Shown piece by piece: positions 2,407 to 20,360 of a DNA stretch of 33,242 nucleotides. How positions within the stretch are numbered: the first letter of the stretch is position 1; each line of letters starts with the position of its first letter. The notes under the pieces are model-generated. The model was not told where the DNA came from. It did not search any database and worked only from the letters and a program-made list of their open reading frames with translations. This DNA comes from Synechococcus sp. AG-670-F04 (GTDB lineage Bacteria; Cyanobacteriota; Cyanobacteriia; PCC-6307; Cyanobiaceae). Both the position numbers and the translations under genes were made by a program. The stretch spans positions 1 to 33,242 of the forward strand of contig QCSN01000020.1 in the NCBI GenBank assembly GCA_003211515.1, written 5' to 3'.

Positions 2407-2580
2407 ATGTCAGCAGTTCTCTCAAAGTGCGCATGTCCCTCTTGTTCCTGTGATGTGCAGGAGTCAAGTGCTGTTGTTAGTCATGGACAAAGCTTTTGTT
2501 CCGATGCCTGTGCAACGGGTCACCCCAATGGTGAGCCCTGTCATGGGACCGGTTCCTGTGGCTGTACTTGCGGTGATTGA
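2407..2580 (+). CDS. bmtA: SmtA/BmtA-type bacterial metallothionein
   Basis: A 57-residue protein with ten Cys and three His. The N-terminal half has CACPSCSC, the middle has FCSDACATGHPNGEPCHG and the end has CGCTC. This is the arrangement of cyanobacterial SmtA, which folds as a Zn4 cluster protein with a zinc finger-like site. It buffers and detoxifies zinc in the cytosol. I chose the ATG at 2407 because the product then begins MSAVLSKCAC, as in known homologues; the frame is open further upstream but without similarity. A Fur/Zur-type palindrome lies at 2305-2317. The gene is separate from the znu island 15 kb away but probably belongs to the same regulon. Confidence 0.93.
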   Translation: MSAVLSKCACPSCSCDVQESSAVVSHGQSFCSDACATGHPNGEPCHGTGSCGCTCGD

Positions 2581-2662: not shown

Positions 2663-3385
2663 TCAATTTGGTTGTTTCGCTTTCTTAATGGTTTCTGAGA
2701 TCCTGTTCCAGAATTCTGCTCGAGCAAAGAGTGTCTTTTTTTTGATGACTTCAACGCGCTTTTTCGCTTCAGGGTCGTTGCCTATTAGCTTCTCGACGAG
2801 TTGGATCGCTAGCGGACCATGGGTTTCCCCATCAAGACTGATGTGGCGCTCCAGGTACCAGTTCAGTGTTGGACAGGGAAGTTGAAGTTGGATGAGCCGA
2901 TTTCGAAGCTCTGCAAACAGCTTTGGCATCAGTAACTCTCGGCCGTAGGTGTAAGCGCCAGCAACCACTTCAGGCTGTCCGTCTTCCAAGCAGTTTTGCG
3001 TGTTGGTCATGAAAGCACGGCTTGCCTCAGGCACTGTTGGATCAGCAAGCATCTCCTTCAAACTGCATCGCCGCATGTTGTCGATCCTTGACGTCATTGC
3101 CCCTGTATCTGCCTCGATTTCACGCATGGCACAAACATAAATCTCAAAATGACTCAGTTCAGCTGGTCCGCCCAAGCCAACCGGTAAGTGATCGCTTTCT
3201 TCTTCTGTGATGAGTTCATCGACCAGAGTCTTTAATTCAGGTTGATGTTTGCCAACCGTCCGCTGAAGCCCTTTGAGGAGATGCATGAAATCCCACACGG
3301 CATAAACATGCAAATCCATGAAGACTCTCAGATCATCGACATCGTTGATTTGCTGAACCAGCCGACTGAACGGGTCTCCAGCCAT
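2663..3385 (-). CDS. DUF3050 family haem-oxygenase-like protein, possible diiron oxidase
   Basis: A 240-residue all-helical protein that matches DUF3050 (haem-oxygenase-like fold), for example the N-terminal HVYAVWDFMHLLKGLQR. Possible metal ligands are E63-x2-H66 in EEESDH, E139 in QPEVVAGAYTYGRE, and H181-x3-D185-x3-H189 in ERHISLDGETHG. That spacing resembles haem-oxygenase-like diiron oxidases and oxygenases such as UndA and SznF. The ligand of the first helix is not clear (H26 or D32 are options). It is the last gene of the nitrilase operon: its start overlaps the stop of the DUF1348 gene by one base (TAATG), so translation is probably coupled. An oxidative tailoring step in the nitrilase pathway is inferred, not shown. 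Confidence 0.75.
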   Translation of the reverse strand: MAGDPFSRLVQQINDVDDLRVFMDLHVYAVWDFMHLLKGLQRTVGKHQPELKTLVDELITEEESDHLPVGLGGPAELSHFEIYVCAMREIEADTGAMTSRIDNMRRCSLKEMLADPTVPEASRAFMTNTQNCLEDGQPEVVAGAYTYGRELLMPKLFAELRNRLIQLQLPCPTLNWYLERHISLDGETHGPLAIQLVEKLIGNDPEAKKRVEVIKKKTLFARAEFWNRISETIKKAKQPN

Positions 3386-3852
3386 TAAAGGCCCAGTTCG
3401 GTGAGACCTGGAAAATCCTCAGGTCGTGCACCATCTCCCCAAGTGAATTTTCGATCTTCCAATTTGATCGGTATGTCGTTGATGCTTGCTTCGCGTCTTC
3501 TCATCAAACCGTTGTCTGAAAACTCCCAGTTTTCATTCCCATGGGCTCGAAACCACTGATCAGCACCATCATGCCACTCATATTGAAACCGAACAGCTAT
3601 TCGGTTGTCGGTGAAAGCCCAAACTTCTTTGATTAGTTTGTAATCAAGCTCTTTGGCCCATTTGCGTTTCAGAAATTCTAGGATTTCCTTCCGACCATAA
3701 ATGAATTCACTGCGGTTTCTCCATACGCTGTCTTCTGTATAGGCCAGAGATACTTTGTCAGGGTCTTTGCTGTTCCAGGCATTTTCAGCCATTCTTGCTT
3801 TTTGTTTGGCAGTTTCAAGGGTGAAGGGGGGGAATGGTGGCTTTCCAGTCAT
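3385..3852 (-). CDS. DUF1348 / NTF2-like protein (SnoaL fold)
   Basis: A 155-residue protein. I chose the ATG at 3852 ([18 protein letters not shown]) because the longer frame would run into the upstream gene. It is nearly full-length DUF1348: [60 protein letters not shown] and a C-terminal [12 protein letters not shown]. These proteins have the NTF2/SnoaL cone fold with a hydrophobic pocket, and most have no assigned reaction. It starts 14 bp after the MSMEG_0570-family gene and overlaps the DUF3050 gene. The tight packing makes it part of the nitrilase operon. It might bind or isomerise a small pathway intermediate. Confidence 0.82.
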
Positions 3853-3866
3853 TGAAGAAGATTTGT

Positions 3867-4148
3867 TTAGGGGAGTTGGTTCATGACACGTACGATCGCT
3901 TTGGGGTCGTATCGAGCGACCCATTCGCGGAGTTGTGCTTCCTGTTCGTCCGTGCGTGTGCAGGAAAAACCAAAACGTTCTCGAACCCGTTCAGAGGCTT
4001 GTCGTAAAGCTTTTGTCCCTAACGATTCGAGTTCGGTGACACTCATTGAGTCACCAGTTTTGAAATAGTTAAGGATCACTGTTGATGGCGAATACAATGT
4101 ACTGCATTGCCCATCAGGCCACTCAAGTTCGAGTTGAACCTCGGGCAT
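3867..4148 (-). CDS. MSMEG_0570 family nitrogen starvation response protein
   Basis: A small protein of 93 residues from the ATG at 4148 ([14 protein letters not shown]); an in-frame ATG at 4166 would add six residues. The family pattern is clear: a beta-rich start with WPDG, then [11 protein letters not shown], and a helical [19 protein letters not shown]. The family occurs almost only in the Nit1C nitrilase cluster. Its biochemical role is unknown; the size suggests a structural or carrier partner. It lies 57 bp downstream of the AIR-synthase-like gene, the widest gap in the operon. Confidence 0.85.
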
Positions 4149-4205
4149 TGAATCCATGAATCTCACTGTAACTATCGCTGCTATCTGCTCCCACCTGCTG
4201 TCGCA

Positions 4206-5180
4206 TCAAGCACATCCAAAACCGGTAAGACCCTCGTCCGATCTCCACAATGTGTGTGTGCTGTCGCCATCGTTAATGAATACCCCTGCTTCCCCCGCGG
4301 AGAAGCAACCAATTGGGCAGTAGGTCAGGTTGTTGGTTCGATTCAGGTGCCCTCGAAGCTGATTCGTTTTTGATGGCTGAACGGCCAGCAAGAATCCGAA
4401 ACTTGGAAAGCAAGTTAACCATTTTAGTTCACCCACCCCTGATGGTCGTCTGATGGCGTTTCGATTCAACGTGATGGTCAGTCCGCAAGCTTCGGCAAAC
4501 ATCGCTGTTGTACCTGTAATGCCACCCATGCTGATGTCTTTCGCAGCGTGAATTGTCTTGTCTTTGGCCAATGCGGGTAGAAGTGCCAAATGATCGCGCA
4601 GCTGTTCTCCAGGCGCTGCTGTTGCTGCATCCCAGAACGGATAGTGCTTGTAAAACGAGCCGTTGTGGTTGATCAGCCACCAAAGCTCATCTCCAGGTTC
4701 AGCTGCTCGCGCTGAAAGTATTGGCCCCTCCGTTACTCCCAGCACGGCGACAGATAGTGCGTCGTAAGGGCTTTGTTGGTTTGAATGCCCTCCCACCATT
4801 GGGACGGCAAAGCGTTCACAAGCCGTTTGCATGCCGGCTTGCATTCTTTCGAGTTCCCCCCGTCTGCGCGTCCAGATGCTGTTCAGCACCGCGATTGGCC
4901 GCCCCCCCATCGCAGCGATGTCGGAGAGATTCACCAACACCCCGCACCAGCCTGCGAACCAGGGATCGTTTGCCACCAGGGTGGGATGCATCCCCTCACA
5001 GGCCATCAGCAAGCTGCCGTTTTGGGCCGGTAAGACAGCGGCATCGTCTCCCAGTAGCGCTGCATGGCCCAGGTTTGGAAACGGCTGATGGGGAAAGATC
5101 TGAGCTGCGGGCTGAATGTCCCTCTTTGAACGCAGTCCCTTGTTCTGACGCAGTTGCTGAATCAAGCGTTCAACGTTCAT
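4206..5180 (-). CDS. Sll0787 family AIR-synthase-like protein (PurM/SelD superfamily)
   Basis: A 324-residue protein starting MNVERLIQQLRQNKG at 5180, with an ATGA overlap to the upstream GNAT gene (5177-5180); longer starts would lie inside that gene. The N-terminal PurM-like domain has LGDDAAVLP near residue 42, the conserved acidic ATP/metal loop of AIR synthases, and AKDISMGGITGTTAMFAEA in the middle forms the second conserved Gly-rich block. The superfamily (PurM, ThiL, SelD, HypE) makes phosphorylated intermediates or aminoimidazole rings from ATP. In Nit1C clusters it is invariant, but its substrate is not known. Confidence 0.88.
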   Translation of the reverse strand: MNVERLIQQLRQNKGLRSKRDIQPAAQIFPHQPFPNLGHAALLGDDAAVLPAQNGSLLMACEGMHPTLVANDPWFAGWCGVLVNLSDIAAMGGRPIAVLNSIWTRRRGELERMQAGMQTACERFAVPMVGGHSNQQSPYDALSVAVLGVTEGPILSARAAEPGDELWWLINHNGSFYKHYPFWDAATAAPGEQLRDHLALLPALAKDKTIHAAKDISMGGITGTTAMFAEACGLTITLNRNAIRRPSGVGELKWLTCFPSFGFLLAVQPSKTNQLRGHLNRTNNLTYCPIGCFSAGEAGVFINDGDSTHTLWRSDEGLTGFGCA

Positions 5181-5812
5181 GCAACTGAGAGCTGATGGGG
5201 GCGGCGTTCGTTGGAGGGTGTGTAGTAGTTCAAATCGGCTTGCATCAGGTGATGGCGAATGCCCCTTATCTCGATTTCCCGGATCGATGTCCAATGCAAC
5301 CGTTTGAAAAAACGCACATTCTGGATTTGGACAGTGGCCAGAAATTCAGCACAACCCCAGCCATTGGCCCGGGTGACTGCTTTCCAGATCAAGCCTTTTC
5401 CAATTTGGTTGTGGCGCCGATAAGCGCTGTGAACGCCGAGGCGGCCTCCATACCAGAGACCTGGTTCTGTTTCGACAATCCGAACGACGCCCACGACCCT
5501 TGCCGTGTCTTCCTCTCCGTGATGTAGCGCGGCAATGGGAATGGCGGTGGCGTCGTGCCCATCTCGGTCTGATGTCTCAAAGACATGTTGCTCGTCGCAA
5601 AAAATTTTTCGACGAAGCTTCCAGTAGCCCTGCAGAAGAGGGGTATTGGGCCCCAGCACATGGAAGGTGAATTGTTCTGAGGTCGCCGTTGGTGACAACC
5701 GAAAGTCATCGGCATCGATGCCAACACCGCAACGCACCGATGGGGTGAACAGGTGCGGGGCAGAGCTGAAGCTGCTGCCAATGTCGCGACTGCTGGGATC
5801 AAGGAAGACCAT
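5177..5812 (-). CDS. MSMEG_0567/Sll0786 family N-acetyltransferase (GNAT)
   Basis: A 211-residue GNAT protein. Residues 60-85 (LRRKIFCDEQHVFETSDRDGHD) are the conserved family segment, GVVRIVETEPGLWYGGRLGVH covers the central strands, and RRHNQIGKGLIWKAV is the acyl-CoA pyrophosphate loop. The C terminus has TVQIQNVRFFKRLHW. In many bacteria this domain is fused to the AIR-synthase-like domain; here they are separate but overlapping genes. The acceptor amine is unknown. It starts 5 bp downstream of the radical SAM gene. Confidence 0.88.
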   Translation of the reverse strand: MVFLDPSSRDIGSSFSSAPHLFTPSVRCGVGIDADDFRLSPTATSEQFTFHVLGPNTPLLQGYWKLRRKIFCDEQHVFETSDRDGHDATAIPIAALHHGEEDTARVVGVVRIVETEPGLWYGGRLGVHSAYRRHNQIGKGLIWKAVTRANGWGCAEFLATVQIQNVRFFKRLHWTSIREIEIRGIRHHLMQADLNYYTPSNERRPHQLSVA

Positions 5813-5817
5813 GGTGT

Positions 5818-6912
5818 TCAGGTGTGGTCTTCAAACAGCGATAGAGCCGAACATGCACCGCATTTCGCACAACCGGCTTGCATTTGATCAGATCTCAGAT
5901 TTCCGTCTCGCAGGATTTTGGCGACGCCTTGGTAGACGTTGATCATGAAGTCTGTGCTCGGTGCGGGGTGATGTTCGAGTGGCGTTCCAGAGATGGGAAC
6001 AAATGGCACCACGAAGGGATAAACCCCGATCTCAACGAGCCGACTTGAGCATGCAAGCAGAGCGTCATGACTATCCCCCAATCCGGCGAGCAGATAGGTC
6101 GACACCTGCCCTCGTCCGAACACCTTCACCGCATCAGCAAAGGCGTTGTAGTAGCGCTCCAGAGTGAGTTCCGACTTTCCTGGAAGAATGCGGCGACGCA
6201 CATCCGGTTCCACCACCTCGAGGTGCATGCCAAGGCTGTCGATTCCCGCCTGTTTCATGCGGTCGTACCAGAGCGGATCATCCGGGGGTTCGCACTGACC
6301 CTGGATCGGAAGATTCACCCGTTGTTTTACGGCGGTAGCCGTCTCAGCCATCATCCGTGCGCCCCTGTCGTCGCTGTTGGGCGTGCCGGTCGTCATCACC
6401 AGTTGGCGCACACCGTCGAGACGTACCGCAGCCTCGGCTACTTCAGCAACGTGTTCCGGGCTTTTCCGCACAACGGTGCGGGCATCCTCCAACGATTGTT
6501 CAATGGCGCAGAATTGGCATGACTGACTGCGGTCTCGGAAGCGAATGCAGGTCTGCAGCAACGTTGTTGCCAGCACATCCCGACCGTGCAACAACGCAAT
6601 CGATCGGTAAGGAATTCCATCCGCCGTTGAGAGCTCATAGAACGCCGGCTGTTGTGTTGTGGAGATCTGATCAGTGATGCCAGCCTGCGGTCCTTCAAGC
6701 TCCACACCTCCCTGGGAGGAGGCATTCAATCTGTATTGAGAGGTCGATGCGGAGGCGTTGTACACCGGTACCATCACCGTGGTTCCATCGAGGGTGAGCG
6801 CCCTGTGGTCTGAAGGGCCTGCTCCACCGCGACGACCACGGTTCCCCTCAACCGATTCTGTCTGCACCCCTTTGACCTGCAGTTCGGTTACCAGTCGCCC
6901 CAATTCAGACAT
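5818..6912 (-). CDS. MSMEG_0568 family radical SAM protein
   Basis: A 364-residue radical SAM enzyme. The iron-sulfur motif is C122-x9-C132-x2-C135 (CIRFRDRSQSCQFC), not the usual CX3CX2C, and is typical of this family. Further matches are MTTGTPNS, LPIQGQCEPPDD, GIDSLGMHLEVVEPDVRRRILPGK and YLLAGLGDS, which follow the TIM-barrel layout seen in biotin-synthase-like enzymes. A C-terminal CX2CX2C (C348, C351, C354) could hold an auxiliary cluster. It would use SAM to start radical chemistry on an unknown substrate. The start overlaps the nitrilase stop by 8 bp. Confidence 0.9.
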   Translation of the reverse strand: MSELGRLVTELQVKGVQTESVEGNRGRRGGAGPSDHRALTLDGTTVMVPVYNASASTSQYRLNASSQGGVELEGPQAGITDQISTTQQPAFYELSTADGIPYRSIALLHGRDVLATTLLQTCIRFRDRSQSCQFCAIEQSLEDARTVVRKSPEHVAEVAEAAVRLDGVRQLVMTTGTPNSDDRGARMMAETATAVKQRVNLPIQGQCEPPDDPLWYDRMKQAGIDSLGMHLEVVEPDVRRRILPGKSELTLERYYNAFADAVKVFGRGQVSTYLLAGLGDSHDALLACSSRLVEIGVYPFVVPFVPISGTPLEHHPAPSTDFMINVYQGVAKILRDGNLRSDQMQAGCAKCGACSALSLFEDHT

Positions 6913-7909
6913 GGTTCATGTCCTCGTGCTGGGGTGTCGCCGATGTAATCGGGCCTGGATCAATACGTCTTGTCGATGGAGCCGTCATGGTTTGCATCGG
7001 CGAGTTTTCTGCGTTGTTGATCTGCAACGACAAAAGCTCCGGGCGGCTGTAATGCCCAACACTGTCCATCATCCGTTTGCGCTTGGTGATTAAGGAGAGA
7101 TCAAGCTCGGCGACGGCTAAGCCTTCTCCATCGGGTAGCGGACCGGCCAGGTATCGACCCTCCGGACTGATCACTGCCGTGTGACATCCCCCGCGGAAGG
7201 CTCTGTGAAGAGATTCGTCTGATGTGATTAGGGTGTGGTCACTGGGATCCAGCCAGCCGGAGGAACAGATCACGAAACAACCGGCCTCTAAAGCGTGGTG
7301 GCGCATGGTGACGGCCGTTTGTTCGCTGAAAATCGGACCGACCAGCGAACCAGGAAACTGCGCACAATGCAGTTCTTCTCCCTGAGCCATCAGGGCGTAG
7401 CGAGCTAGGGGGTTGTAGTGCTCCCAGCAAGCCAAGGCTCCAATGCGTCCAATCGCGGTCGGCACCACCTTCAAACCGGAGCCATCGCCTTGGCCCCACA
7501 CCATTCGCTCGTGATACGTGGGTGTGATTTTGCGCCGCTTCAACACAAGCTCACCACAACTGTTGAACAGCAGTTGCGTGTTGTAGAGAGTGCCCCCGTC
7601 CCGTTCGTTCACTCCCAGTAACACCTGCATGCCGTGTTGCTGGGCAGCACTCGACACTGCATCAGTTATTGGCCCAGGAACAACAACCGCTTGCTCGTAC
7701 AGCGCCAAATGTGCTTTCCCCATGCGAACAGGAGGTTCAACGAATGAGAAATAGGGGTAATACGGGAGAAATGTTTCTGGAAAGACAATCAGTTCAACAC
7801 CCTGAGCCGCAGCTTCGGCCATGGCATCCAGAACTCTTTGTAGAGATCCATCCAGGTTGAATAACACTGGACGGATCTGGGCTGCAGCAACTTTCAATGG
7901 GGAAACCAT
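6905..7909 (-). CDS. Nit1 subfamily nitrilase
   Basis: A 334-residue carbon-nitrogen hydrolase, starting MVSPLKVAAAQ at 7909; further upstream the frame enters the previous gene. The catalytic triad is visible: Glu45 in IVFPETF, Lys127 in KRRKITPTYHERMVWGQGDG, and Cys161 in ALACWEHYNPLARYALMAQ, all in the nitrilase branch pattern (CWEHYNPL). It hydrolyses nitriles to carboxylic acid and ammonia, and perhaps cyanide: in Pseudomonas fluorescens NCIMB 11764 the orthologous cluster is needed for growth on cyanide. It is the second gene of the operon and defines the Nit1C cluster (Sll0784 in Synechocystis). Confidence 0.93.
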   Translation of the reverse strand: MVSPLKVAAAQIRPVLFNLDGSLQRVLDAMAEAAAQGVELIVFPETFLPYYPYFSFVEPPVRMGKAHLALYEQAVVVPGPITDAVSSAAQQHGMQVLLGVNERDGGTLYNTQLLFNSCGELVLKRRKITPTYHERMVWGQGDGSGLKVVPTAIGRIGALACWEHYNPLARYALMAQGEELHCAQFPGSLVGPIFSEQTAVTMRHHALEAGCFVICSSGWLDPSDHTLITSDESLHRAFRGGCHTAVISPEGRYLAGPLPDGEGLAVAELDLSLITKRKRMMDSVGHYSRPELLSLQINNAENSPMQTMTAPSTRRIDPGPITSATPQHEDMNHV

Positions 7910-7928
7910 GAATGCAAACTGTTTTGAA

Positions 7929-8426
7929 TCAGAGAGTCCACGTGTCAAGAATGAAGGCACCTTCCTTCCGGTGCATCAGGACGATATCCAGAACATCCAA
8001 TGGATTAACAGGAGTAATCCCAGGCATCAATGCACCTTCCCCATGGCCGTAAAGCGCCTGTAGAGCAAAACGGCACGCATAAACTTTCCCCCCCTGATCC
8101 ATAAATTTTTGAAGGCGTGCATTGAAATTGAGATGTCCGTCAAAGGCGGCATCACCGAGCTTCGGGAATCCTCTTTGAACTCCCAAGGTCACACCAGGAC
8201 CGTAGAGCAGAACTGACGTTTCAAATCCCTTGGTAATTAATCGGCTGGCTTGCAACAGGTTGACCAGCCCGATCGAACCTTCAAATGCCACGGTGTGAAA
8301 AGTGACCAGGGCCTTTTCGCCGGGATCTGCCTTCACATCAGGAAAAACCTTTTCTTCGTAGTCAACGAGAAAATCACCCGGTTGATTGGCAGGACGCTCA
8401 ACGGAGGGCATGTCACAAAACTCCAA
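7929..8426 (-). CDS. MSMEG_0572/Sll0783 family nitrogen starvation response protein
   Basis: A 165-residue protein, first gene of the nitrilase operon. Conserved parts are [57 protein letters not shown] and [19 protein letters not shown]. The fold is probably DsrE-like, judging from the mix of a sulfur-relay-like core and conserved Cys. In Synechocystis the homologue Sll0783 is strongly induced by nitrogen starvation and is required for polyhydroxybutyrate accumulation. The true start may be 8411 ([12 protein letters not shown]). The promoter lies in 8427-8583 next to an NtcA-type box. Confidence 0.9.
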
Positions 8427-8517: not shown

Positions 8518-8531
8518 GTATTTACTGCTAC
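8518..8531. promoter_or_regulatory. NtcA-type box GTA-N8-TAC in the divergent nitrilase promoter
   Basis: GTA at 8518-8520 and TAC at 8529-8531 are separated by exactly 8 bases, the consensus for the cyanobacterial nitrogen regulator NtcA. The site is in the 157-bp region between the divergent operons. On the plus strand a TAAAAT at 8560-8565 could be the -10 box, 28 bases after the site (22-23 is usual). On the minus strand no convincing -10 was found. Chance occurrence of the six fixed bases in 157 bp is a few percent; the nitrogen-starvation genes on both sides make it credible. Confidence 0.65.
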
Positions 8532-8583: not shown

Positions 8584-9888
8584 ATGACTCAATCGTCCGA
8601 TAGCTGCAAGCTGAAGACGGTTGTTGTGATTGGCGCAGGCCAGGCTGGCCTTTCCGTTGCCGAAGCATTACATCGCCAAGGCCTTCGGCCCCTTGTCTTG
8701 GAGAAAAACAAGATTGGTTTTGCATGGGATCAGCAACGCTGGGACTCGTTTTGCCTGGTCACGCCGAATTGGCAATGCCGGTTGCCGGGATTTCCCTACG
8801 ACGGTCACGACCCCGATGGCTTTATGGACAAAAGGGCGATCGTTGATTTTTTGAGGCGCTTCGCTCAACACGTGGGTGCCGATGTCCGTGAGGGTATCGC
8901 TGTTCGCCGACTCACGCACAGCGGCGGTCGTTATCGCCTGCACACCACCGAGGGTGTGATCAACGCTGATCACGTGGTTGTGGCAACAGGCGGTTATCAC
9001 ATCCCCAAGCGCCATCCTTTGGCTGAACGTCTACCAACTACCGTTCGGCAACTCGATGCTTGCGACTACCGCAATCCTGAATCGCTGCCCTCGGGTCCGG
9101 TCCTTGTTGTTGGTAGTGGTCAGTCCGGAAGTCAGATCGCAGAAGACCTGTTTCTTGCCGGCCGGGAGGTGCACTTGAGTGTCGGCAGTGCACCTCGTTC
9201 TCCCAGGCGTTATCGCGGTCGTGACGTTGTTGATTGGCTCGATCGTATGGGGTACTACGCCATGCCAATCAGTGAGCACAGCGACCCCCGTTCTGTTCGC
9301 GCCAAAACCAATCACTACCTCACTGGCAGGGATGGTGGTCGTGAGATTGACCTTCGCCGACGCGCTCTCGAGGGCCTCAATCTGCATGGTCGTCTCTCCA
9401 CGATTGAAGCCGATCACATTGGCTTCGCCATGGATCTGGCTGAAAATCTCGATCATGCTGATGCCGTGTATTGCAGGATTCGTAGCAGTATTGATTCGTG
9501 GATTGAGCAGCAGGATTTCGAGCGATCCATCCCTGAGGAGGATGTTTATTCACCGTGTTGGCATCCATCCACGGCAACAGACCCAGGTTTGGATCTAAGG
9601 CATACACCCCTTGCTGCAGTGATCTGGTGCATGGGCTATCGCAGCGACTTCAGTTGGGTTGATGTGCCTGTTTTCGATGGTTCAGGACAACCCGCCCATG
9701 AGCGGGGCGTCACGACCAGTTCCGGGCTCTACTTTTTAGGGCTGCCCTGGTTGCATACCTGGGGTTCAGGTCGATTCTGTGGGATTCAAGAGGATGCCAA
9801 CTACCTGGCCAAGCTGATCAGTCTTCGGGTGCAACGACGGGATGCCAGTCAGGAACGCTTGGAATGTACGGCGATTCTGGGCAGTTAA
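8584..9888 (+). CDS. MSMEG_0569 family flavin-dependent monooxygenase-like protein
   Basis: A 434-residue flavoprotein of the class B monooxygenase type. The FAD site is VVVIGAGQAGLSVAEAL at about residues 13-29 and the NADPH site is VLVVGSGQSGSQIAEDL at about 170-186. WDQQRWDSFCLVTPNWQ and FPYDGHDPDGFM are family segments, and the C-terminal FLGLPWLHTWGSGRFCGI with DANYLA closes the FAD domain. It is the seventh conserved member of the Nit1C set and probably oxygenates a pathway intermediate. It is transcribed away from the operon but shares its promoter region. Confidence 0.92.
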   Translation: MTQSSDSCKLKTVVVIGAGQAGLSVAEALHRQGLRPLVLEKNKIGFAWDQQRWDSFCLVTPNWQCRLPGFPYDGHDPDGFMDKRAIVDFLRRFAQHVGADVREGIAVRRLTHSGGRYRLHTTEGVINADHVVVATGGYHIPKRHPLAERLPTTVRQLDACDYRNPESLPSGPVLVVGSGQSGSQIAEDLFLAGREVHLSVGSAPRSPRRYRGRDVVDWLDRMGYYAMPISEHSDPRSVRAKTNHYLTGRDGGREIDLRRRALEGLNLHGRLSTIEADHIGFAMDLAENLDHADAVYCRIRSSIDSWIEQQDFERSIPEEDVYSPCWHPSTATDPGLDLRHTPLAAVIWCMGYRSDFSWVDVPVFDGSGQPAHERGVTTSSGLYFLGLPWLHTWGSGRFCGIQEDANYLAKLISLRVQRRDASQERLECTAILGS

Positions 9889-15071: not shown

Positions 15072-16133
15072 TTAGGAGTTTTTTCCCTCTCTGATTTTAA
15101 AATCCCACACATTGATGCCCCCTTCTGCATCGATGGCTGCCAAGGCGCTGTCGTTCGGCTTCCAGCACACTTCACTGACGCGTTCACCCACGAACGCCCC
15201 TCCTAAAGGGTTCCCATCGCCGTTTTTATCTAGAAACCACACAAACACTGAGCCGTCTCTTGAACCTGAAGCAAGGACTAATCTTTGATTTGCAAAGGCA
15301 AGGCTTGAGATTGGCTCCGGATGAAGGACGAGTTGCCCGGGCAGTGACCCTTCAGGGCCCTTCCCCTGAAAATTCCAGACGATGATTTGATCACTTCCAC
15401 CGGTTGCCAAAAACCGGCCGCTTTGATCAAAGGCAAGTTGACTTGGCTTGCCTGGATAGCCTGTCATTTCAGCATCCATTCCTGTTGTCCGCCGCCAGAA
15501 ATGAACAGAGTTGTCCTGACTTCCACAAGCGACAATGTCACCATCGGGGCTTAGCACCATGGAAACAAGTGATCCTTGCCATTCAAGTTTCTGATCTTCT
15601 TGCTGTTCGGTGAGGTTGAAGAATGTGACCCGGCCATAACAGGCCGATGCCAGCTCATCAGGCTTCGACCAAGAGATTGCGCTAACGGTGCTTGGATGCG
15701 CATCTGTTTTCCATTGTTCTATGCCATCGCTGCTGTAAAGGTGAACGTGTCGTCCAGAAGCGACTGCCAGCGTTTGTCCATTGTCCGACCAGGCAAGATG
15801 TTCTACCCAGCTCTTGCCGGGTTGAATTTGGTGGAGTACATCCCCGGTTGTTGCATCCCACACCACGACAGATCCATCTTGTCCGGATGTTGCGACTCGA
15901 TCTCCCTCTGGGTGAATCGCTAAGGCGAGCAACCCTCCTTGATGGACCTCTTTCTTGGTCCAAATTAAGTTGCCCGAATCAGCATTGAATGCATAAAGTC
16001 CCCCAGCAACGTCTCCAACGAGAAGTGTTTTGCCTTTCTCCCCCCATCCACAGGTGAGGGCATAGTCATCTGCTTGTGCGCTCCAACCCTCATGAAGCAT
16101 GCCCTGAGGGGCAAAGGCTTTCATATCAGGCAT
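15072..16133 (-). CDS. WD40 repeat protein paired with the COG0523 GTPase
   Basis: A 353-residue protein made of seven or so WD40 repeats. Clear repeat ends are VATSGQDGSVVVWD, VACGSQDNSVHFWR, LATGGSDQIIVWN, LASGSRDGSVFVW and IDAEGGINVWD, giving a complete beta-propeller. There is no signal peptide, so it is cytosolic. Its start overlaps the end of the CobW-like gene by 13 bp, so translation is coupled and the expression should be zinc-controlled. A scaffold for the metallochaperone or its client is the simple inference. Confidence 0.9.
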   Translation of the reverse strand: MPDMKAFAPQGMLHEGWSAQADDYALTCGWGEKGKTLLVGDVAGGLYAFNADSGNLIWTKKEVHQGGLLALAIHPEGDRVATSGQDGSVVVWDATTGDVLHQIQPGKSWVEHLAWSDNGQTLAVASGRHVHLYSSDGIEQWKTDAHPSTVSAISWSKPDELASACYGRVTFFNLTEQQEDQKLEWQGSLVSMVLSPDGDIVACGSQDNSVHFWRRTTGMDAEMTGYPGKPSQLAFDQSGRFLATGGSDQIIVWNFQGKGPEGSLPGQLVLHPEPISSLAFANQRLVLASGSRDGSVFVWFLDKNGDGNPLGGAFVGERVSEVCWKPNDSALAAIDAEGGINVWDFKIREGKNS

Positions 16134-17497
16134 TGATCGAAGTCCTTGCGTATTTGATCTTCATCGAGATTACGGCCGATAAATACAAGCTGGTTGCGCC
16201 GTGGTTCATCCCCCCACTCTTGACCAGGTTGGGCAGTGAACAGCATATGCACCCCTTGGAAAACGATTCGTCTGGATTCATTTGGGTAGCTGATAAAACC
16301 TTTGGTTCGGAAGATATCCACTCCCTTCTCGGCTAGGAGTTGCCCGATCCATTGATCCAGTTTGTCTGGATCCACGTTGCCAACGCGTTCAATTGCCATT
16401 GAACCCACTTCATCATCATGCTCATGCTCTGCCACCCACACACGTTCTTTGATGGGCTTGATCGGGGTAAAGGATTGTTCTGCTGCGGATGTTTTCATTC
16501 CAGAGGAGGTTTCTTTGATGATCTTCAAATCGAATTCTTCGGCAGTATGCTGTGCATAAAAACCAATAGTTGTGTTTGTTTTTGAATTAAAGTGAAATGT
16601 TTTTGAGCCACTTGATTTAAGTTGAAGACTTAGATGCTGTTTCATCGAAATCGAATCACCAGGATTGATAGCCGTGGCAGGAAGGGCATACAATCGAACG
16701 CATTGCTCCGCACTCTCCTTTAAAGACTCCTCATCCTCTTTCTGTTCAGGTATGCCTACGAGTGACATTTCTGGGTCAGGGCCCTCCTCCAGAATCATCT
16801 GATAATGACCCTCCTCTAATTGATAAACACCTGTCCACTCAAACGGATATTCAGGTTCGAGAAATGTCGGACGCCGTTCTAATACTTGATCTAAGTCGAA
16901 TGCGCTCAAATTTAGGACGCTTTCTACCGATACATCAGCTTGTGTACTTCGCACAACCTGCGCCATTGAATTCATATCGCGTAACCTCGATTCCAATTTG
17001 ACCAACGAATCCTCTTTGACTAAATCTGATTTATTCAGAATCAGTACATCGGCAAATGCAACTTGTTCCGAACTCTCTTGACTGCGTTCGAGCTGTTGAT
17101 CAATATGGGCGGCATCAATAAGTGTCACGATGCCATCCAGGGTGAACTCTTCTCGAATCTCCTCATCCATAAAAAATGTTTGAGCAACAGGGCCCGGGTC
17201 CGCCAGTCCAGTTGTTTCAACAAGGACGTAGTCGAACTTGTCTCTTCGCTTCATTAGATTGCCCAAGACTCTTATTAAATCACCTCTGACTGTGCAGCAT
17301 ATACATCCATTGGACATCTCAAATACCTCCTCATCTGCATTGATCACGAGCCCTTGATCAATGCCAACTTCTCCATATTCATTTTCGATTACTGCGATCC
17401 GCTTTCCATGTTCTTCGCTTAATATTTTATTTAACAATGTAGTTTTTCCGGATCCAAGATAGCCCGTCAGAATTGTAACTGGTACTTTTTGATACAT
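16121..17497 (-). CDS. COG0523/CobW family GTPase, putative zinc metallochaperone
   Basis: A 458-residue G3E GTPase from the ATG at 17497 (MYQKVPVTILTGYLGSGKT); longer starts (GTG 17545, ATG 17527) would leave the operator overlapping or crowding the ribosome site. Walker A is GYLGSGKT at 12-19 and the metal site CxCC is at 65-68 (GCICCTVRGDL). NKSD is the guanine motif, and the C-terminal CobW_C domain follows. A linker has HEHDDE. Zur-controlled COG0523 proteins (ZagA-like) deliver zinc to client proteins when zinc is scarce. The gene faces znuA across a Zur-type box. Confidence 0.9.
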   Translation of the reverse strand: MYQKVPVTILTGYLGSGKTTLLNKILSEEHGKRIAVIENEYGEVGIDQGLVINADEEVFEMSNGCICCTVRGDLIRVLGNLMKRRDKFDYVLVETTGLADPGPVAQTFFMDEEIREEFTLDGIVTLIDAAHIDQQLERSQESSEQVAFADVLILNKSDLVKEDSLVKLESRLRDMNSMAQVVRSTQADVSVESVLNLSAFDLDQVLERRPTFLEPEYPFEWTGVYQLEEGHYQMILEEGPDPEMSLVGIPEQKEDEESLKESAEQCVRLYALPATAINPGDSISMKQHLSLQLKSSGSKTFHFNSKTNTTIGFYAQHTAEEFDLKIIKETSSGMKTSAAEQSFTPIKPIKERVWVAEHEHDDEVGSMAIERVGNVDPDKLDQWIGQLLAEKGVDIFRTKGFISYPNESRRIVFQGVHMLFTAQPGQEWGDEPRRNQLVFIGRNLDEDQIRKDFDQCLI

Positions 17498-17547
17498 CGT
17501 TGGATCACATCCTTTTGATGCCACCATAATGATGCTGGCGTGCACCT

Positions 17548-17570
17548 GTGAGAATGATTAACATTCTTAC
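17548..17570. promoter_or_regulatory. Zur-type operator between cobW and znuA
   Basis: GTGAGAATG-ATTAA-CATTCTTAC is an imperfect 23-bp palindrome centred on 17559; nine of eleven pairs match. TGAGAATGATTAACA (17549-17563) fits the Fur-family pattern TGANAATNATTNTCA with one mismatch. It lies 51 bp from the cobW start and 53 bp from the znuA start, so one bound Zur dimer could repress both directions. The half-site TGAGAAT is shared with the bmtA box at 2305. Confidence 0.8.
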
Positions 17571-17623
17571 AAGTGCTGTTAAGCATCTTTTTCGATTTCA
17601 CTTTCTCTGACTTTCTTCGCTGA

Positions 17624-18709
17624 ATGGCTTCTTTGTTTTCTCGGTTAAGTGCGGTTTCAATCCTTTTAAGCATTGTCGCATGCGGGACGCCTGCCACCAC
17701 CGAAGATGTTGCTTCCAAAGATGAGGGGTTGAAGGTCGTAACGACGTTTCTTCCAATTACATTGTTTACTGAAGCTGTTGCTGGAGAATGTGCAGAGGTC
17801 ACTTCCTTGATTCCTCCGAGTCTGGGTCCTCATGACTTTCAGGCTTCACCCTCAGACTTAGCTGCTTTAAGCCAGGCGTCGGTTCTTGTTCAGAACGGAT
17901 TGGGTATCGAGGAGTTCTTGGAAGATCTGGTTTCTTCTGCTGGAAATCAGAATCTTGTTGTAATTGATTCCAGTCAGGGTGTGGCCACGATTAAGGCGGC
18001 TGGGGGAGGTCATGAAGATCATGAAGGTCATGAAGGTCATGAAGGTCATGAAGGTCATGAAGATCATGAAGATCATGAAGATCATGAAGATCATGAAGAT
18101 CATGAAGATCATGAAGATCATGCTGAGGCCCATGATGATCAGAGTGTCGCTGCTGGCGATAGTGGTGGGCACTCACATGGTCATGGCGAGTTTGACCCGC
18201 ACATCTGGTTGGATCCTCTGCGCGCTGTTCAACAGGTTGAAAACATCAGAGATGGTTTAGTTGCAGCTGATCCAGCCTGTGCAGATGGGTACAAGAAAAA
18301 TGCTGAATCCTTTACGGCAAAGCTGGAGGATTTGAATACCGAACTGACAGTCTTGTTGAAGCCCTATAAGGGAAAGACCTTTGTTGCATTTCACGATTTT
18401 GCAACATATTTTGCCAATCGTTATTCACTGAAGGCTGAATTTTTGGTTGATCTCCCCGAAATGAACCCAAGTCCTGCTGACCTCCAGCGTGTGAGTGCGC
18501 AGGTTAAATCTTCAGGCCTCAAGGCTCTACTCACCGAACCGCAAGAGGGGAACCGATCTTTCAACGCGTTGGCGAAAGACCTGGGGGTGAATATCGTTGA
18601 ATTCAACCCATTGGAGACCGGCTCTGAAGATTCGTCAAAGCTTCCAGACACTTACCTTGATGTAATGCGCTCCAACGTCAACAACCTTGTCAAGGCCATC
18701 GGGAACTGA
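17624..18709 (+). CDS. znuA: Zinc ABC transporter substrate-binding lipoprotein ZnuA
   Basis: A 361-residue cluster A-I binding protein. The lipobox SIVAC places the lipid anchor on Cys20. Zinc ligands are expected at His in IPPSLGPHDFQAS, His in GEFDPHIWLDP, His in FVAFHDFATYF, and Glu/Asp near TEPQEGN. Between the first two lies the His-rich loop: twelve HE[DG] triplets from a 9-bp DNA repeat at 18011-18118, then HSHGHGEF. The loop is the usual place for zinc capture in ZnuA. It begins the znuA-znuC-znuB operon, with 6 bp to znuC. Confidence 0.95.
   Translation: MASLFSRLSAVSILLSIVACGTPATTEDVASKDEGLKVVTTFLPITLFTEAVAGECAEVTSLIPPSLGPHDFQASPSDLAALSQASVLVQNGLGIEEFLEDLVSSAGNQNLVVIDSSQGVATIKAAGGGHEDHEGHEGHEGHEGHEDHEDHEDHEDHEDHEDHEDHAEAHDDQSVAAGDSGGHSHGHGEFDPHIWLDPLRAVQQVENIRDGLVAADPACADGYKKNAESFTAKLEDLNTELTVLLKPYKGKTFVAFHDFATYFANRYSLKAEFLVDLPEMNPSPADLQRVSAQVKSSGLKALLTEPQEGNRSFNALAKDLGVNIVEFNPLETGSEDSSKLPDTYLDVMRSNVNNLVKAIGN
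18011..18118 (+). repeat. 9-bp minisatellite (12 units) in znuA
   Basis: Twelve copies of CATGAAG[AG]T encode HED or HEG: one HED, four HEG, seven HED. The grouping of identical variants suggests stepwise tandem duplication. Units are in frame, so copy changes alter only the length of the His-rich loop. Confidence 0.95.
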
Positions 18710-18715
18710 CCTTTG

Positions 18716-19486
18716 ATGCAGAGCCCAGTTCTTGTCGTGAGCGACCTCTCGGTCGAACGTTCAGGTCGTCTTGCTGTCGAGAAGGTCTCGTTTGAACTTG
18801 CGAGTGAAAGCGAGACCGCTGTCGTCGGTCCAAACGGTGCTGGCAAAAGCACCTTGGTTGCTGCCTTGCTAGGTCTGCTGCCAAGGTCTGCTGGTGATGT
18901 TGAGATCCTTGGCCGTTCCCTGGCTTCCAACGGCCACCTTCCGGGTTTTATCAGATCAAAGATTGCTTATGTGCCCCAGAGTTTGTCTCTGCAGGGCCGT
19001 TTCCCACTGACGGTTGCAGAGTTTGTCGGTTTTGGCTTTGATCCCCCTGGCCCCCGTTGGCCCTGGCGCCAGACGATGCAACGGCTTGAAGCGGTTGAGA
19101 CCGCCCTTGATCGCACTGGATGTCTTGATCTCCAACATCGTTTGCTCAGTGAATTATCCGGGGGCCAACTGAAACGTGTGATGCTGTCGTTCTGTGTTGT
19201 GCGGCCTCGCCAACTTTTGGTGCTTGATGAGGCACAGGCAGGGCTTGATGTGCCATCAAACGAACGATTTCAGCAACTACTGCTTGAGTTGCGTCGTGAA
19301 GAAGGATGGACTGTTTTGCATGTTTCCCACGATCTGGACATGGTGCGTCGCAGCAGTGACCAGGTTCTCTGCTTAAACAGGCGCCTCTGCTGTAGCGGCA
19401 CACCGGACAACACACTCACTCCGGAACGGCTAACTGAGCTGTATGGGTCCAACGTCGTTCCCTATCGACACCAGTGCCATGGTTGA
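18716..19486 (+). CDS. znuC: Zinc ABC transporter ATP-binding protein ZnuC
   Basis: A 256-residue ABC ATPase from the ATG at 18716; a TTG one codon earlier is also possible. Walker A is GPNGAGKST near residue 41, the Q-loop is YVPQ, the signature is LSGGQLKR, and Walker B is LLVLDEAQAGLD with the H-loop HVSHD. It powers zinc import with ZnuA and ZnuB. Its 3' end overlaps znuB by 44 bp. Confidence 0.93.
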   Translation: MQSPVLVVSDLSVERSGRLAVEKVSFELASESETAVVGPNGAGKSTLVAALLGLLPRSAGDVEILGRSLASNGHLPGFIRSKIAYVPQSLSLQGRFPLTVAEFVGFGFDPPGPRWPWRQTMQRLEAVETALDRTGCLDLQHRLLSELSGGQLKRVMLSFCVVRPRQLLVLDEAQAGLDVPSNERFQQLLLELRREEGWTVLHVSHDLDMVRRSSDQVLCLNRRLCCSGTPDNTLTPERLTELYGSNVVPYRHQCHG

Positions 19487-20360
19487 TGCCGGTTCCTTGC
19501 AGTTGATTCTCGCTGAACCGTTTATGCAGCGTGCGTTGCTGGGTGGGTTATTGACGGGAGCGCTGGGTGGAGTGCTCGGCAGCATTGCCGTTTTGCGGCA
19601 GTTGTCGTTCTTCAGTGATGCTCTTGGTCACTCAGCTTTGTTGGGCATCACCATCGGAATCTTGATTGGTGTCAATCCAACGCTGATTCTCATTCCGTTT
19701 GCGGTGGTTTTTGCCATTCTTGTCAACCAACTCGTTGAACGCAGTTCACTCCCAACAGATGCCCTTCTGAATATCGTTTATTCGAGTTCCCTGGCGGCTG
19801 CGATTCTTGCCCTGAGCCTTGTAAAACACTATCGCGGTGGTATTCGTCAGCTGCTTTTTGGAGACATCCTTGGCGTCAGCAATCTTGATCTTGTTGTTAT
19901 TGGCGTTCTGCTCACAGCTGCCGTGATCTATGTCGGCGTTAGTTTGCGTGCTCAGGTTCTTCTTACGTTGAACGAACAACTTGCTGGTGCTGTTGGTGTA
20001 CGCACTGGCTGGCACCGGCTTGCTTTCATTGTGTTGTTGGCCGTGGTGGTTGCTGTTTCCATTAAGGCAGTCGGCGTTTTGTTGATCAGTGCTTTCGTGG
20101 TCATTCCGGCCTGTGCCGGTCGTTTGCTGTGCCGTCGTTTTCCTTATTACATCTCTGCTTCCGCTGCCTTGGGGGGAAGTTGCGCACTCCTCGGTTTGCT
20201 TGTTTCCGGACTCACCAATCTTCCCTCGGGTCCATCTGTGGTGATGGTTCAGTTTTTGGGGTTTGTGATGGCGCTGATTTTGAGTTCGAGTTTGCTCAGT
20301 GGGAGATCAAGGCAGCCAGCTCGGCCCCGAATTCCTGGTGCAGGCCCAATCGACCTTTGA
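19443..20360 (+). CDS. znuB: Zinc ABC transporter permease ZnuB
   Basis: A 305-residue ABC-3 type permease with eight or so transmembrane helices. Typical segments are GGVLGSIAVLRQLSFFSDALGHSALLG (the coupling helix with D and H) and SIKAVGVLLISAFVVIPA. The start may be 19443 or 19479 (MVDAGSLQL); the second would reduce the overlap with znuC to 8 bp. The last 65 bases are shared with the convergent hydrolase gene. The C terminus ends in a basic, Pro-rich tail. Confidence 0.93.
   Translation: MGPTSFPIDTSAMVDAGSLQLILAEPFMQRALLGGLLTGALGGVLGSIAVLRQLSFFSDALGHSALLGITIGILIGVNPTLILIPFAVVFAILVNQLVERSSLPTDALLNIVYSSSLAAAILALSLVKHYRGGIRQLLFGDILGVSNLDLVVIGVLLTAAVIYVGVSLRAQVLLTLNEQLAGAVGVRTGWHRLAFIVLLAVVVAVSIKAVGVLLISAFVVIPACAGRLLCRRFPYYISASAALGGSCALLGLLVSGLTNLPSGPSVVMVQFLGFVMALILSSSLLSGRSRQPARPRIPGAGPIDL

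What the first reader, a model, noticed from the sequence alone, without database searches (positions are those of the whole stretch)
2663..8426. Nit1C nitrilase operon extended by DUF1348 and DUF3050 genes
Six conserved Nit1C genes are followed, with 14-bp spacing and a 1-bp overlap, by an NTF2-like and a haem-oxygenase-like protein. The tight packing suggests two additional enzymes or binding proteins in a pathway whose product is still unknown. Together with the divergent flavin monooxygenase this would be a nine-protein system with radical SAM, flavin and possibly diiron chemistry.
Basis: partly seen in the sequence, partly recalled or inferred. Interest (0 to 1): 0.78.

Follow-up and report, generated by a model that had tools for sequence, protein, structure and literature searches.

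The report
Cyanide-use operon with two extra genes
A marine cyanobacterium's cyanide/nitrile-use gene cluster carries two extra genes, a probable two-iron oxygenase and a small pocket protein; relatives carry the second one beside their cyanate-use genes as well, which gives a concrete lead to what it does.

Summary
A complete Nit1C cluster (nitH divergent; nitBCDEFG) is followed, tightly packed, by DUF1348 (14-bp gap) and DUF3050 (1-bp overlap). Among 250 sampled genomes of the window's order (its own included), 17 have DUF3050: 16 of 17 also have nitC, 13 of 17 have it 3.6-3.8 kb from nitC, and 17 of 17 have DUF1348 beside it. In two genomes nitG, DUF1348 and DUF3050 sit together away from any nitBCDEF run, so the three look like a separable module. 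DUF3050 keeps every predicted diiron ligand; its model matches HamA best. DUF1348 is no Nit1C specialist: 20 of 49 genomes have it near nitC, but 12 of 44 order genomes and 7 of 20 other cyanobacterial loci have it beside cyanase (cynS), in several arrangements. The glycosyltransferase of other Nit1C clusters was found in 0 of 56 sampled nitC genomes of the order. Best reading: DUF1348 is an accessory shared by cyanide and cyanate use, DUF3050 an O2-dependent diiron oxidase at the NitG stage; substrates unknown. A 2022 figure legend (PMC9716671) already lists both genes, without discussion in the passages read. New variant of a known kind.

The parts
8584..9888 (+). nitH, MSMEG_0569-family flavin-dependent oxidoreductase, divergent
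   Evidence: TIGR04046 632 bits, cut-off 498
7929..8411 (-). nitB, MSMEG_0572/Sll0783 family
   Evidence: TIGR04044 273 bits; frame
6905..7909 (-). nitC, Nit6803-family nitrilase
   Evidence: TIGR04048 565 bits, cut-off 503
5818..6912 (-). nitD, MSMEG_0568-family radical SAM protein
   Evidence: TIGR04043 578 bits
5177..5812 (-). nitE, GNAT N-acetyltransferase
   Evidence: TIGR04045 221 bits
4206..5180 (-). nitF, sll0787-family AIR synthase-like protein
   Evidence: TIGR04049 401 bits
3867..4148 (-). nitG, MSMEG_0570 family; partner of the DUF1348/DUF3050 pair
   Evidence: TIGR04042 105 bits; module in L056 and L157
3385..3852 (-). DUF1348, NTF2-like protein
   Evidence: PF07080 218 bits; solved relative 2imj, E 3.2e-69
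2663..3385 (-). DUF3050, haem-oxygenase-like diiron protein (predicted)

Best explanation
The window holds the cyanide/nitrile-use cluster Nit1C of a picocyanobacterium, extended by a two-gene accessory that looks to be read in the same unit. Shown here: the gene order, the tight packing kept across relatives, the near-constant pairing of DUF3050 with DUF1348 and with nitC genomes, the nitG-DUF1348-DUF3050 module that can stand apart, and a second home of DUF1348 beside cyanase. Inferred: (1) DUF1348, a small pocket protein of the NTF2/SnoaL fold, binds or turns over a reactive small C-N species that arises in both cyanide and cyanate use (a cyanohydrin, cyanate itself, or a carbamoyl or cyano adduct); (2) DUF3050 is an O2-dependent, non-haem diiron oxygenase/oxidase that acts on the intermediate present at the NitG stage, after nitrilase, radical SAM, acetyl transfer and AIRS-type steps; (3) in this order the pair sits on the far side of nitG, where other Nit1C clusters have a glycosyltransferase on the near side, so the end of the pathway differs. 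Likelihoods: functional coupling of the three genes about 0.8; diiron oxygenase chemistry about 0.75; a shared C-N species as DUF1348's ligand about 0.45; any one named reaction under 0.2.
For: Cluster and families. Order sample of 250 genomes: nitC over cut-off in 56, DUF3050 in 17, DUF1348 in 49; DUF3050 in 16 of 56 nitC genomes against 1 of 194 others (raw Fisher 8.7e-11), 13 of 17 at 3.6-3.8 kb from nitC, 17 of 17 beside DUF1348. Modules: G073 has nitG-DUF1348-DUF3050 (L056) while its nitHBCDEF run (L159) lacks nitG and the genome has no second nitG; G303 has DUF1348-nitG-DUF3050 (L157), no nitC at E 1e-100 and no other Nit1C gene on that 18-kb stretch. DUF1348 lies in Nit1C at three positions: after nitG, between nitF and nitG (L156), between nitC and nitD (L155); its tree needs 7 changes of the 'in Nit1C' label, at least 6 forced by well-supported branches. 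cynS beside DUF1348: 8 of 44 order genomes at 79 bp (profile match to profile match) and 4 of 44 at 1.2-3.3 kb; 7 of 20 other cyanobacterial DUF1348 loci, same strand. Among nitC genomes DUF1348 is in 29 of 31 with cynS and 7 of 18 without (raw p 6e-5). Diiron site: E61-E63, D65, H79, E150, H181, D185, H189 invariant in 17 of 17; nearest folds HamA, CADD, then SSO2700, FlcD, HrmI. Glycosyltransferase TIGR04047: 0 of 56 order nitC genomes, 7 of 11 other cyanobacterial nitC genomes.
Against: Corrected for kinship, the DUF1348-cynS link among nitC genomes is only suggestive (about 5.8 pairs against 1.0, median p 0.125); DUF1348 in the cluster against cynS gives 3.3 to 0.0, median p 0.25; DUF3050 against cynS 3.6 to 1.0, median p 0.375. 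DUF1348 stands away from both nitC and cynS in 16 of 44 order genomes, in 13 of 20 other cyanobacterial loci cynS is not on the stretch, nor in L155, L156, L157 and L174, and some loci have glutathione S-transferase and TetR-like genes instead, so its role may be broader. 43 of 56 nitC genomes lack DUF3050 in the cluster, so it is optional. G142, G073 and G120 group together on the DUF3050 and DUF1348 trees but not on the nitBCD tree, so the pair has moved or been lost independently of Nit1C there. Near relatives of DUF3050 outside cyanobacteria share no frequent neighbour and 0 of 79 have Nit1C genes nearby. G303's DUF3050 falls in another part of the tree, but one origin with the picocyanobacterial clade is not rejected (p-AU 0.137), so convergent assembly is not shown. 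No expression or chemical data.
Confidence: 0.55

Rival explanations
1. Tailoring swap in a biosynthetic pathway: Nit1C makes a small metabolite; many bacteria glycosylate it at the NitG stage, picocyanobacteria oxidise it with DUF3050 helped by DUF1348. Cyanide use is secondary.
For: Glycosyltransferase TIGR04047 adjacent to nitG in 7 of the 8 cyanobacterial genomes that have it and in the two proteobacterial plasmid clusters read, but found in 0 of 56 order nitC genomes; the glycosyltransferase-nitG pair and the nitG-DUF1348-DUF3050 module can each stand away from the cluster. HamA-type DUF3050 proteins belong to a metabolite pathway (PMC5878181, passages).
Against: G263 has both the glycosyltransferase and DUF1348 in its Nit1C, so they do not exclude each other; 36 of 56 order nitC genomes have neither near the cluster, nor does the Picosynechococcus plasmid cluster L233; it does not explain DUF1348 beside cynS.
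Confidence: 0.25
2. DUF3050 oxidises cyanide or a cyanohydrin to cyanate, which cyanase then splits; DUF1348 guards or channels cyanate.
For: Diiron site; cynS present in 14 of the 16 DUF3050 genomes among the 197 searched; the two Nit1C genomes of the window's genus in the sample that lack the pair, G044 and G157, also lack cynS; L083, a gammaproteobacterial MAG, has cynS, DUF1348 and DUF3050 within 3.4 kb.
Against: The DUF3050-cynS link is not significant after kinship correction; G022 and G120 have DUF3050 and no cynS; of 79 non-cyanobacterial DUF3050 loci only L083 and L110 show cynS on the stretch; in P. pseudoalcaligenes cyanate is reported not to be an intermediate of cyanide use (PMC6627978, passages), though its cluster as described has no DUF3050.
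Confidence: 0.1
3. Hitch-hiking: the two genes sit behind Nit1C by chance and spread with it; no shared function.
For: Optional: 13 of 56 clusters have DUF3050; DUF1348 split or reduced in G022 and G127.
Against: DUF1348 in Nit1C at three positions; nitG-DUF1348-DUF3050 together away from the cluster in G073 and G303; intact ligands in 17 of 17.
Confidence: 0.1

Closest known systems
Nit1C cluster (Podar et al. 2005, PMC1199592; passages read)
   Same: All seven genes, six in the canonical order on one strand, flavoprotein divergent as described there for cyanobacteria
   Different: Two more genes behind nitG; no MSMEG_0565 glycosyltransferase
Nit1C contig of Ca. Regnicoccus frigidus (PMC9716671; passages incl. 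Fig. 8 legend)
   Same: Legend names nitB-nitH genes together with a DUF3050 gene and an ntf2 gene on that contig
   Different: No function or co-occurrence of the two genes is discussed in the passages read; gene order in the figure not seen
HamA / MgoB / PvfA (DUF3050) of the ham, mgo and pvf clusters
   Same: Same Pfam family for MgoB (PMC3298696); HamA is the best structural match and aligns over nearly the whole length
   Different: Those clusters encode an NRPS and an AurF-type or diiron N-oxygenase (PMC5878181, PMC10194917, passages); the Nit1C locus has neither among the ten proteins scanned
cynABDS cyanate operon
   Same: DUF1348 is a frequent neighbour of cynS in cyanobacteria
   Different: No cyn gene in the Nit1C locus of the window; the genome's cynS is on another contig (G000:C8)
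CADD, UndA, FlcD, HrmI, PolF (haem-oxygenase-like diiron enzymes)
   Same: Fold and the ligand layout described for CADD (PMC4520260)
   Different: 10-17% identity in the alignments listed; substrates differ

Membership tests
Nit1C cluster | Seven conserved genes nitB-G plus nitH in conserved order | tested here: met
   All above NCBIfam cut-offs; order and frames
Nit1C cluster | Use of cyanide or nitriles as nitrogen source | not testable with these tools
   Reported for Pseudomonas (PMC11049912, passages)
DUF3050 (PF11251) | Profile match over cut-off | tested here: met
   197 bits against 22
Haem-oxygenase-like diiron oxidase/oxygenase | Helical fold of the superfamily and complete metal-ligand set | tested here: met
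Haem-oxygenase-like diiron oxidase/oxygenase | Iron content and O2-dependent catalysis | not testable with these tools
   Needs protein
DUF1348 / NTF2-like | Profile match and solved relative | tested here: met
   218 bits; 2imj, E 3.2e-69
ham/mgo/pvf diazeniumdiolate cluster | NRPS and AurF-type N-oxygenase next to DUF3050 | tested here: not met
   None among ten proteins of the locus
cynABDS cyanate operon | cynS in the same locus | tested here: not met
   The one cynS match of the genome lies on G000:C8, not on the window's contig C20

The most novel reading that the evidence does not exclude
Picocyanobacteria have a cyanide-to-cyanate branch: DUF3050 is a new diiron oxygenase that oxidises cyanide or a cyanohydrin-derived product, and DUF1348 is a cyanate/cyanide-adduct handling protein shared by the Nit1C and cyn loci, so that two nitrogen-scavenging routes thought separate are joined.
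Probability: 0.1. Interest if true: 0.85.

Novelty: new variant of a known kind. Interest (0 to 1): 0.52.

Why it matters
No product of Nit1C appeared in anything I read here. A second locus (cyn) that shares the uncharacterised protein DUF1348 narrows its likely ligand to small C-N compounds, and the movable nitG-DUF1348-DUF3050 module singles out NitG, whose predicted fold matched nothing well in the PDB search, as the step at which the pathway varies. Both lead to direct tests in culturable marine Synechococcus.

Tried and rejected
NtcA control: a strict GTA-N8-TAC site lies at window 8518-8531 in the nitB-nitH gap, but only 8 of 58 nitB-nitH gaps held have one (duplicate loci among the 58), so nitrogen control by that site is not supported across relatives.

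Conserved neighbours of DUF3050 outside cyanobacteria: in 79 loci no family beyond DUF3050 itself occurs in more than 9 of them, and those look like housekeeping genes by eye.

Convergent recruitment of DUF3050 by the G303 module: suggested by the tree, not established (p-AU 0.137). The 62-row tree used 40 of the 79 non-cyanobacterial loci (every second).

Product of Nit1C: the listings of searches named none (lists capped at 10-30 papers). Viridisamide, a recalled lead, appears there with cyanobactins and was dropped. DUF1348 with cyanate or cyanide in print: the listings showed none beyond PMC9716671. Kamennaya & Post 2011 is not held, Espie et al. 2007 was not looked up, and PMC6627978 (passages) says that cynABD and cynS may be 'separated by other putative genes', so the gene between them may have been seen before.

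Plasmids: four records appear in both listed top 40s of nitC and DUF1348, the listed places being far apart in each (one record has a second DUF1348 place that is not listed); seven annotated stretches read.

Rows dropped: the G133 duplicate locus L067; for G022 only the longer frame piece was used. In one search four nitC genomes without known cynS state were left out of the pair tests (49 of 53 rows used), and three more of the 56 had no locus.
Full report
Observation. The seven Nit1C proteins, DUF1348 and DUF3050 are at the stated places. The window is contig C20 of a 2.25-Mb, 68% complete genome of a picocyanobacterium; the nearest named locus is L075, Synechococcus sp. AG-670-B23, with the same nine genes in the same order.

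Co-occurrence in the order. In 250 genomes, the window's included, nitC passes its cut-off in 56, DUF3050 in 17 and DUF1348 in 49. DUF3050: 13 of 17 lie 3.6-3.8 kb from nitC, one (G120) 7 kb away on the other strand, two (G073, G126) on another contig, one (G205) in a genome without nitC; 17 of 17 have DUF1348 69-95 bp away, profile match to profile match. DUF1348: 20 of 49 within 6 kb of nitC, of which G127 is a remnant and G022 is split over two frames; 29 of 49 elsewhere. Raw Fisher values for co-occurrence with nitC are 8.7e-11 and 1.8e-21 and ignore kinship.

Beyond the order. In 292 genomes of the phylum, 21 have nitC at E 1e-100 or better, 11 of them outside the window's family; one of these, G423, is under the cut-off and shows no other Nit1C gene on its 18-kb stretch. 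DUF3050 is in 0 of these 11. DUF1348 is inside Nit1C in 2 of 11: between nitC and nitD in G263, between nitF and nitG in G368.

The nitG module. G073 keeps nitG-DUF1348-DUF3050 on one contig and nitHBCDEF without nitG on another (L056, L159). G303, of another family, has DUF1348-nitG-DUF3050, no nitC, and no other Nit1C gene on the 18-kb stretch (L157). Elsewhere nitG travels with the MSMEG_0565 glycosyltransferase: it is adjacent to nitG in 7 of the 8 genomes that have it (not in G260), and G410 and G430 (L175, L177) have the pair away from the rest. That glycosyltransferase is in 0 of 56 order nitC genomes, 7 of 11 others and in G380, and in the two proteobacterial plasmid clusters read; the Picosynechococcus plasmid cluster L233 shows neither it nor DUF1348. 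NitG is thus the constant partner at the variable end.

DUF1348 and cyanate. Scanning the loci in hand for cyanase showed it beside DUF1348. A search of 197 genomes of the order found cynS in 99. Of the 44 DUF1348 genomes among them, 8 have cynS 79 bp away, convergent, and 4, all of the small-genome genus g2, 1.2-3.3 kb away; 4 of the 8 also have Nit1C on the other side. Of 20 DUF1348 loci fetched from other families (29 such genomes), 7 have cynS on the same strand, three with DUF1348 before and four after it; four further loci (L155, L156, L157, L174) have none. Before these genes lie ABC transporter genes: in L204 two pass the NCBIfam nitrate-transporter cut-offs, and the same transporter clusters recur in 12-13 of 33 DUF1348 loci compared. 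That this is the cynABDS layout is my label from recall; no profile names CynABD. In the 197 genomes cynS is in 36 of 44 with DUF1348 and 63 of 153 without (raw p 2e-6); within nitC genomes DUF1348 is in 29 of 31 with cynS and 7 of 18 without (raw p 6e-5). On a nitBCD tree the independent-pair test gives about 6:1, median p 0.125: suggestive only. Other DUF1348 loci stand with glutathione S-transferase genes and TetR-like genes (by eye; annotated), so a broader role in handling reactive small molecules is open.

Trees. On the DUF1348 tree (39 rows) the Nit1C label needs 7 changes, at least 6 forced by well-supported branches (shuffled mean 13.0; 1 of 500 as low); G263's two copies, one in Nit1C and one not, are sisters. 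On the DUF3050 tree (62 rows) the 18 rows of the window's family form one clade (100/100); the window's row has a long branch. Within it the window groups with the same genomes as on the nitBCD tree, but G142, G073 and G120 stand together on the DUF3050 and DUF1348 trees and apart on the nitBCD tree: the pair has moved, or been lost, as a unit there.

What is in print. PMC9716671 (passages) lists DUF3050 and ntf2 in the legend of its Nit1C figure; PMC10119275 (passages) speaks of a seven-gene unit in picocyanobacteria; PMC1199592 (passages) defines Nit1C and notes a glycosyltransferase between ORFs 5 and 6 in two beta-proteobacteria. The ten paper searches (capped lists) showed no other paper whose listing ties DUF1348 or DUF3050 to cyanide or cyanate use.

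Judgement. The coupling of the three genes is well supported; DUF1348's tie to cyanase is the most useful new clue; the chemistry is inference. A sensible name is Nit1C with a nitG-linked DUF1348-DUF3050 accessory.

Noticed in passing
L167, L168, L169, L196, L197, L200, L203, L204, L210, L212: DUF1348 next to cyanase, in several arrangements, in cyanobacteria without Nit1C or away from it.
   Followed up: yes
L083:7393-10708: A gammaproteobacterial MAG has cynS, DUF1348 and DUF3050 within 3.4 kb, with an unknown 106-aa ORF and an opposite-strand 91-aa ORF between cynS and DUF1348.
   Followed up: partly
L110:4610-5050: cynS about 5 kb from DUF3050 in Hymenobacter coccineus.
   Followed up: no
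L175:6791-8294, L177:8582-10060: Glycosyltransferase MSMEG_0565 and nitG together, away from the rest of Nit1C.
   Followed up: partly
L062:8394-8859: DUF1348 of G022 is split over two frames (or a sequencing error) inside an otherwise whole Nit1C; G127 (L074) keeps only a piece.
   Followed up: no
window 2663-3385: The window's DUF3050 is only 35-46% identical to relatives whose nitC is about 75-87% identical, with a very long branch, yet keeps every predicted metal ligand.
   Followed up: partly
window 2410-2580: Prokaryotic metallothionein gene (PF02069), convergent with the operon's end.
   Followed up: no
window 15072-20360: WD40 protein and CobW-type GTPase divergent from a ZnuA, ABC ATPase and ABC-3 permease set: probably a zinc uptake locus.
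   Followed up: no
L198, L201, L237: DUF1348 with glutathione S-transferase and TetR-like genes (by eye; annotated).
   Followed up: no
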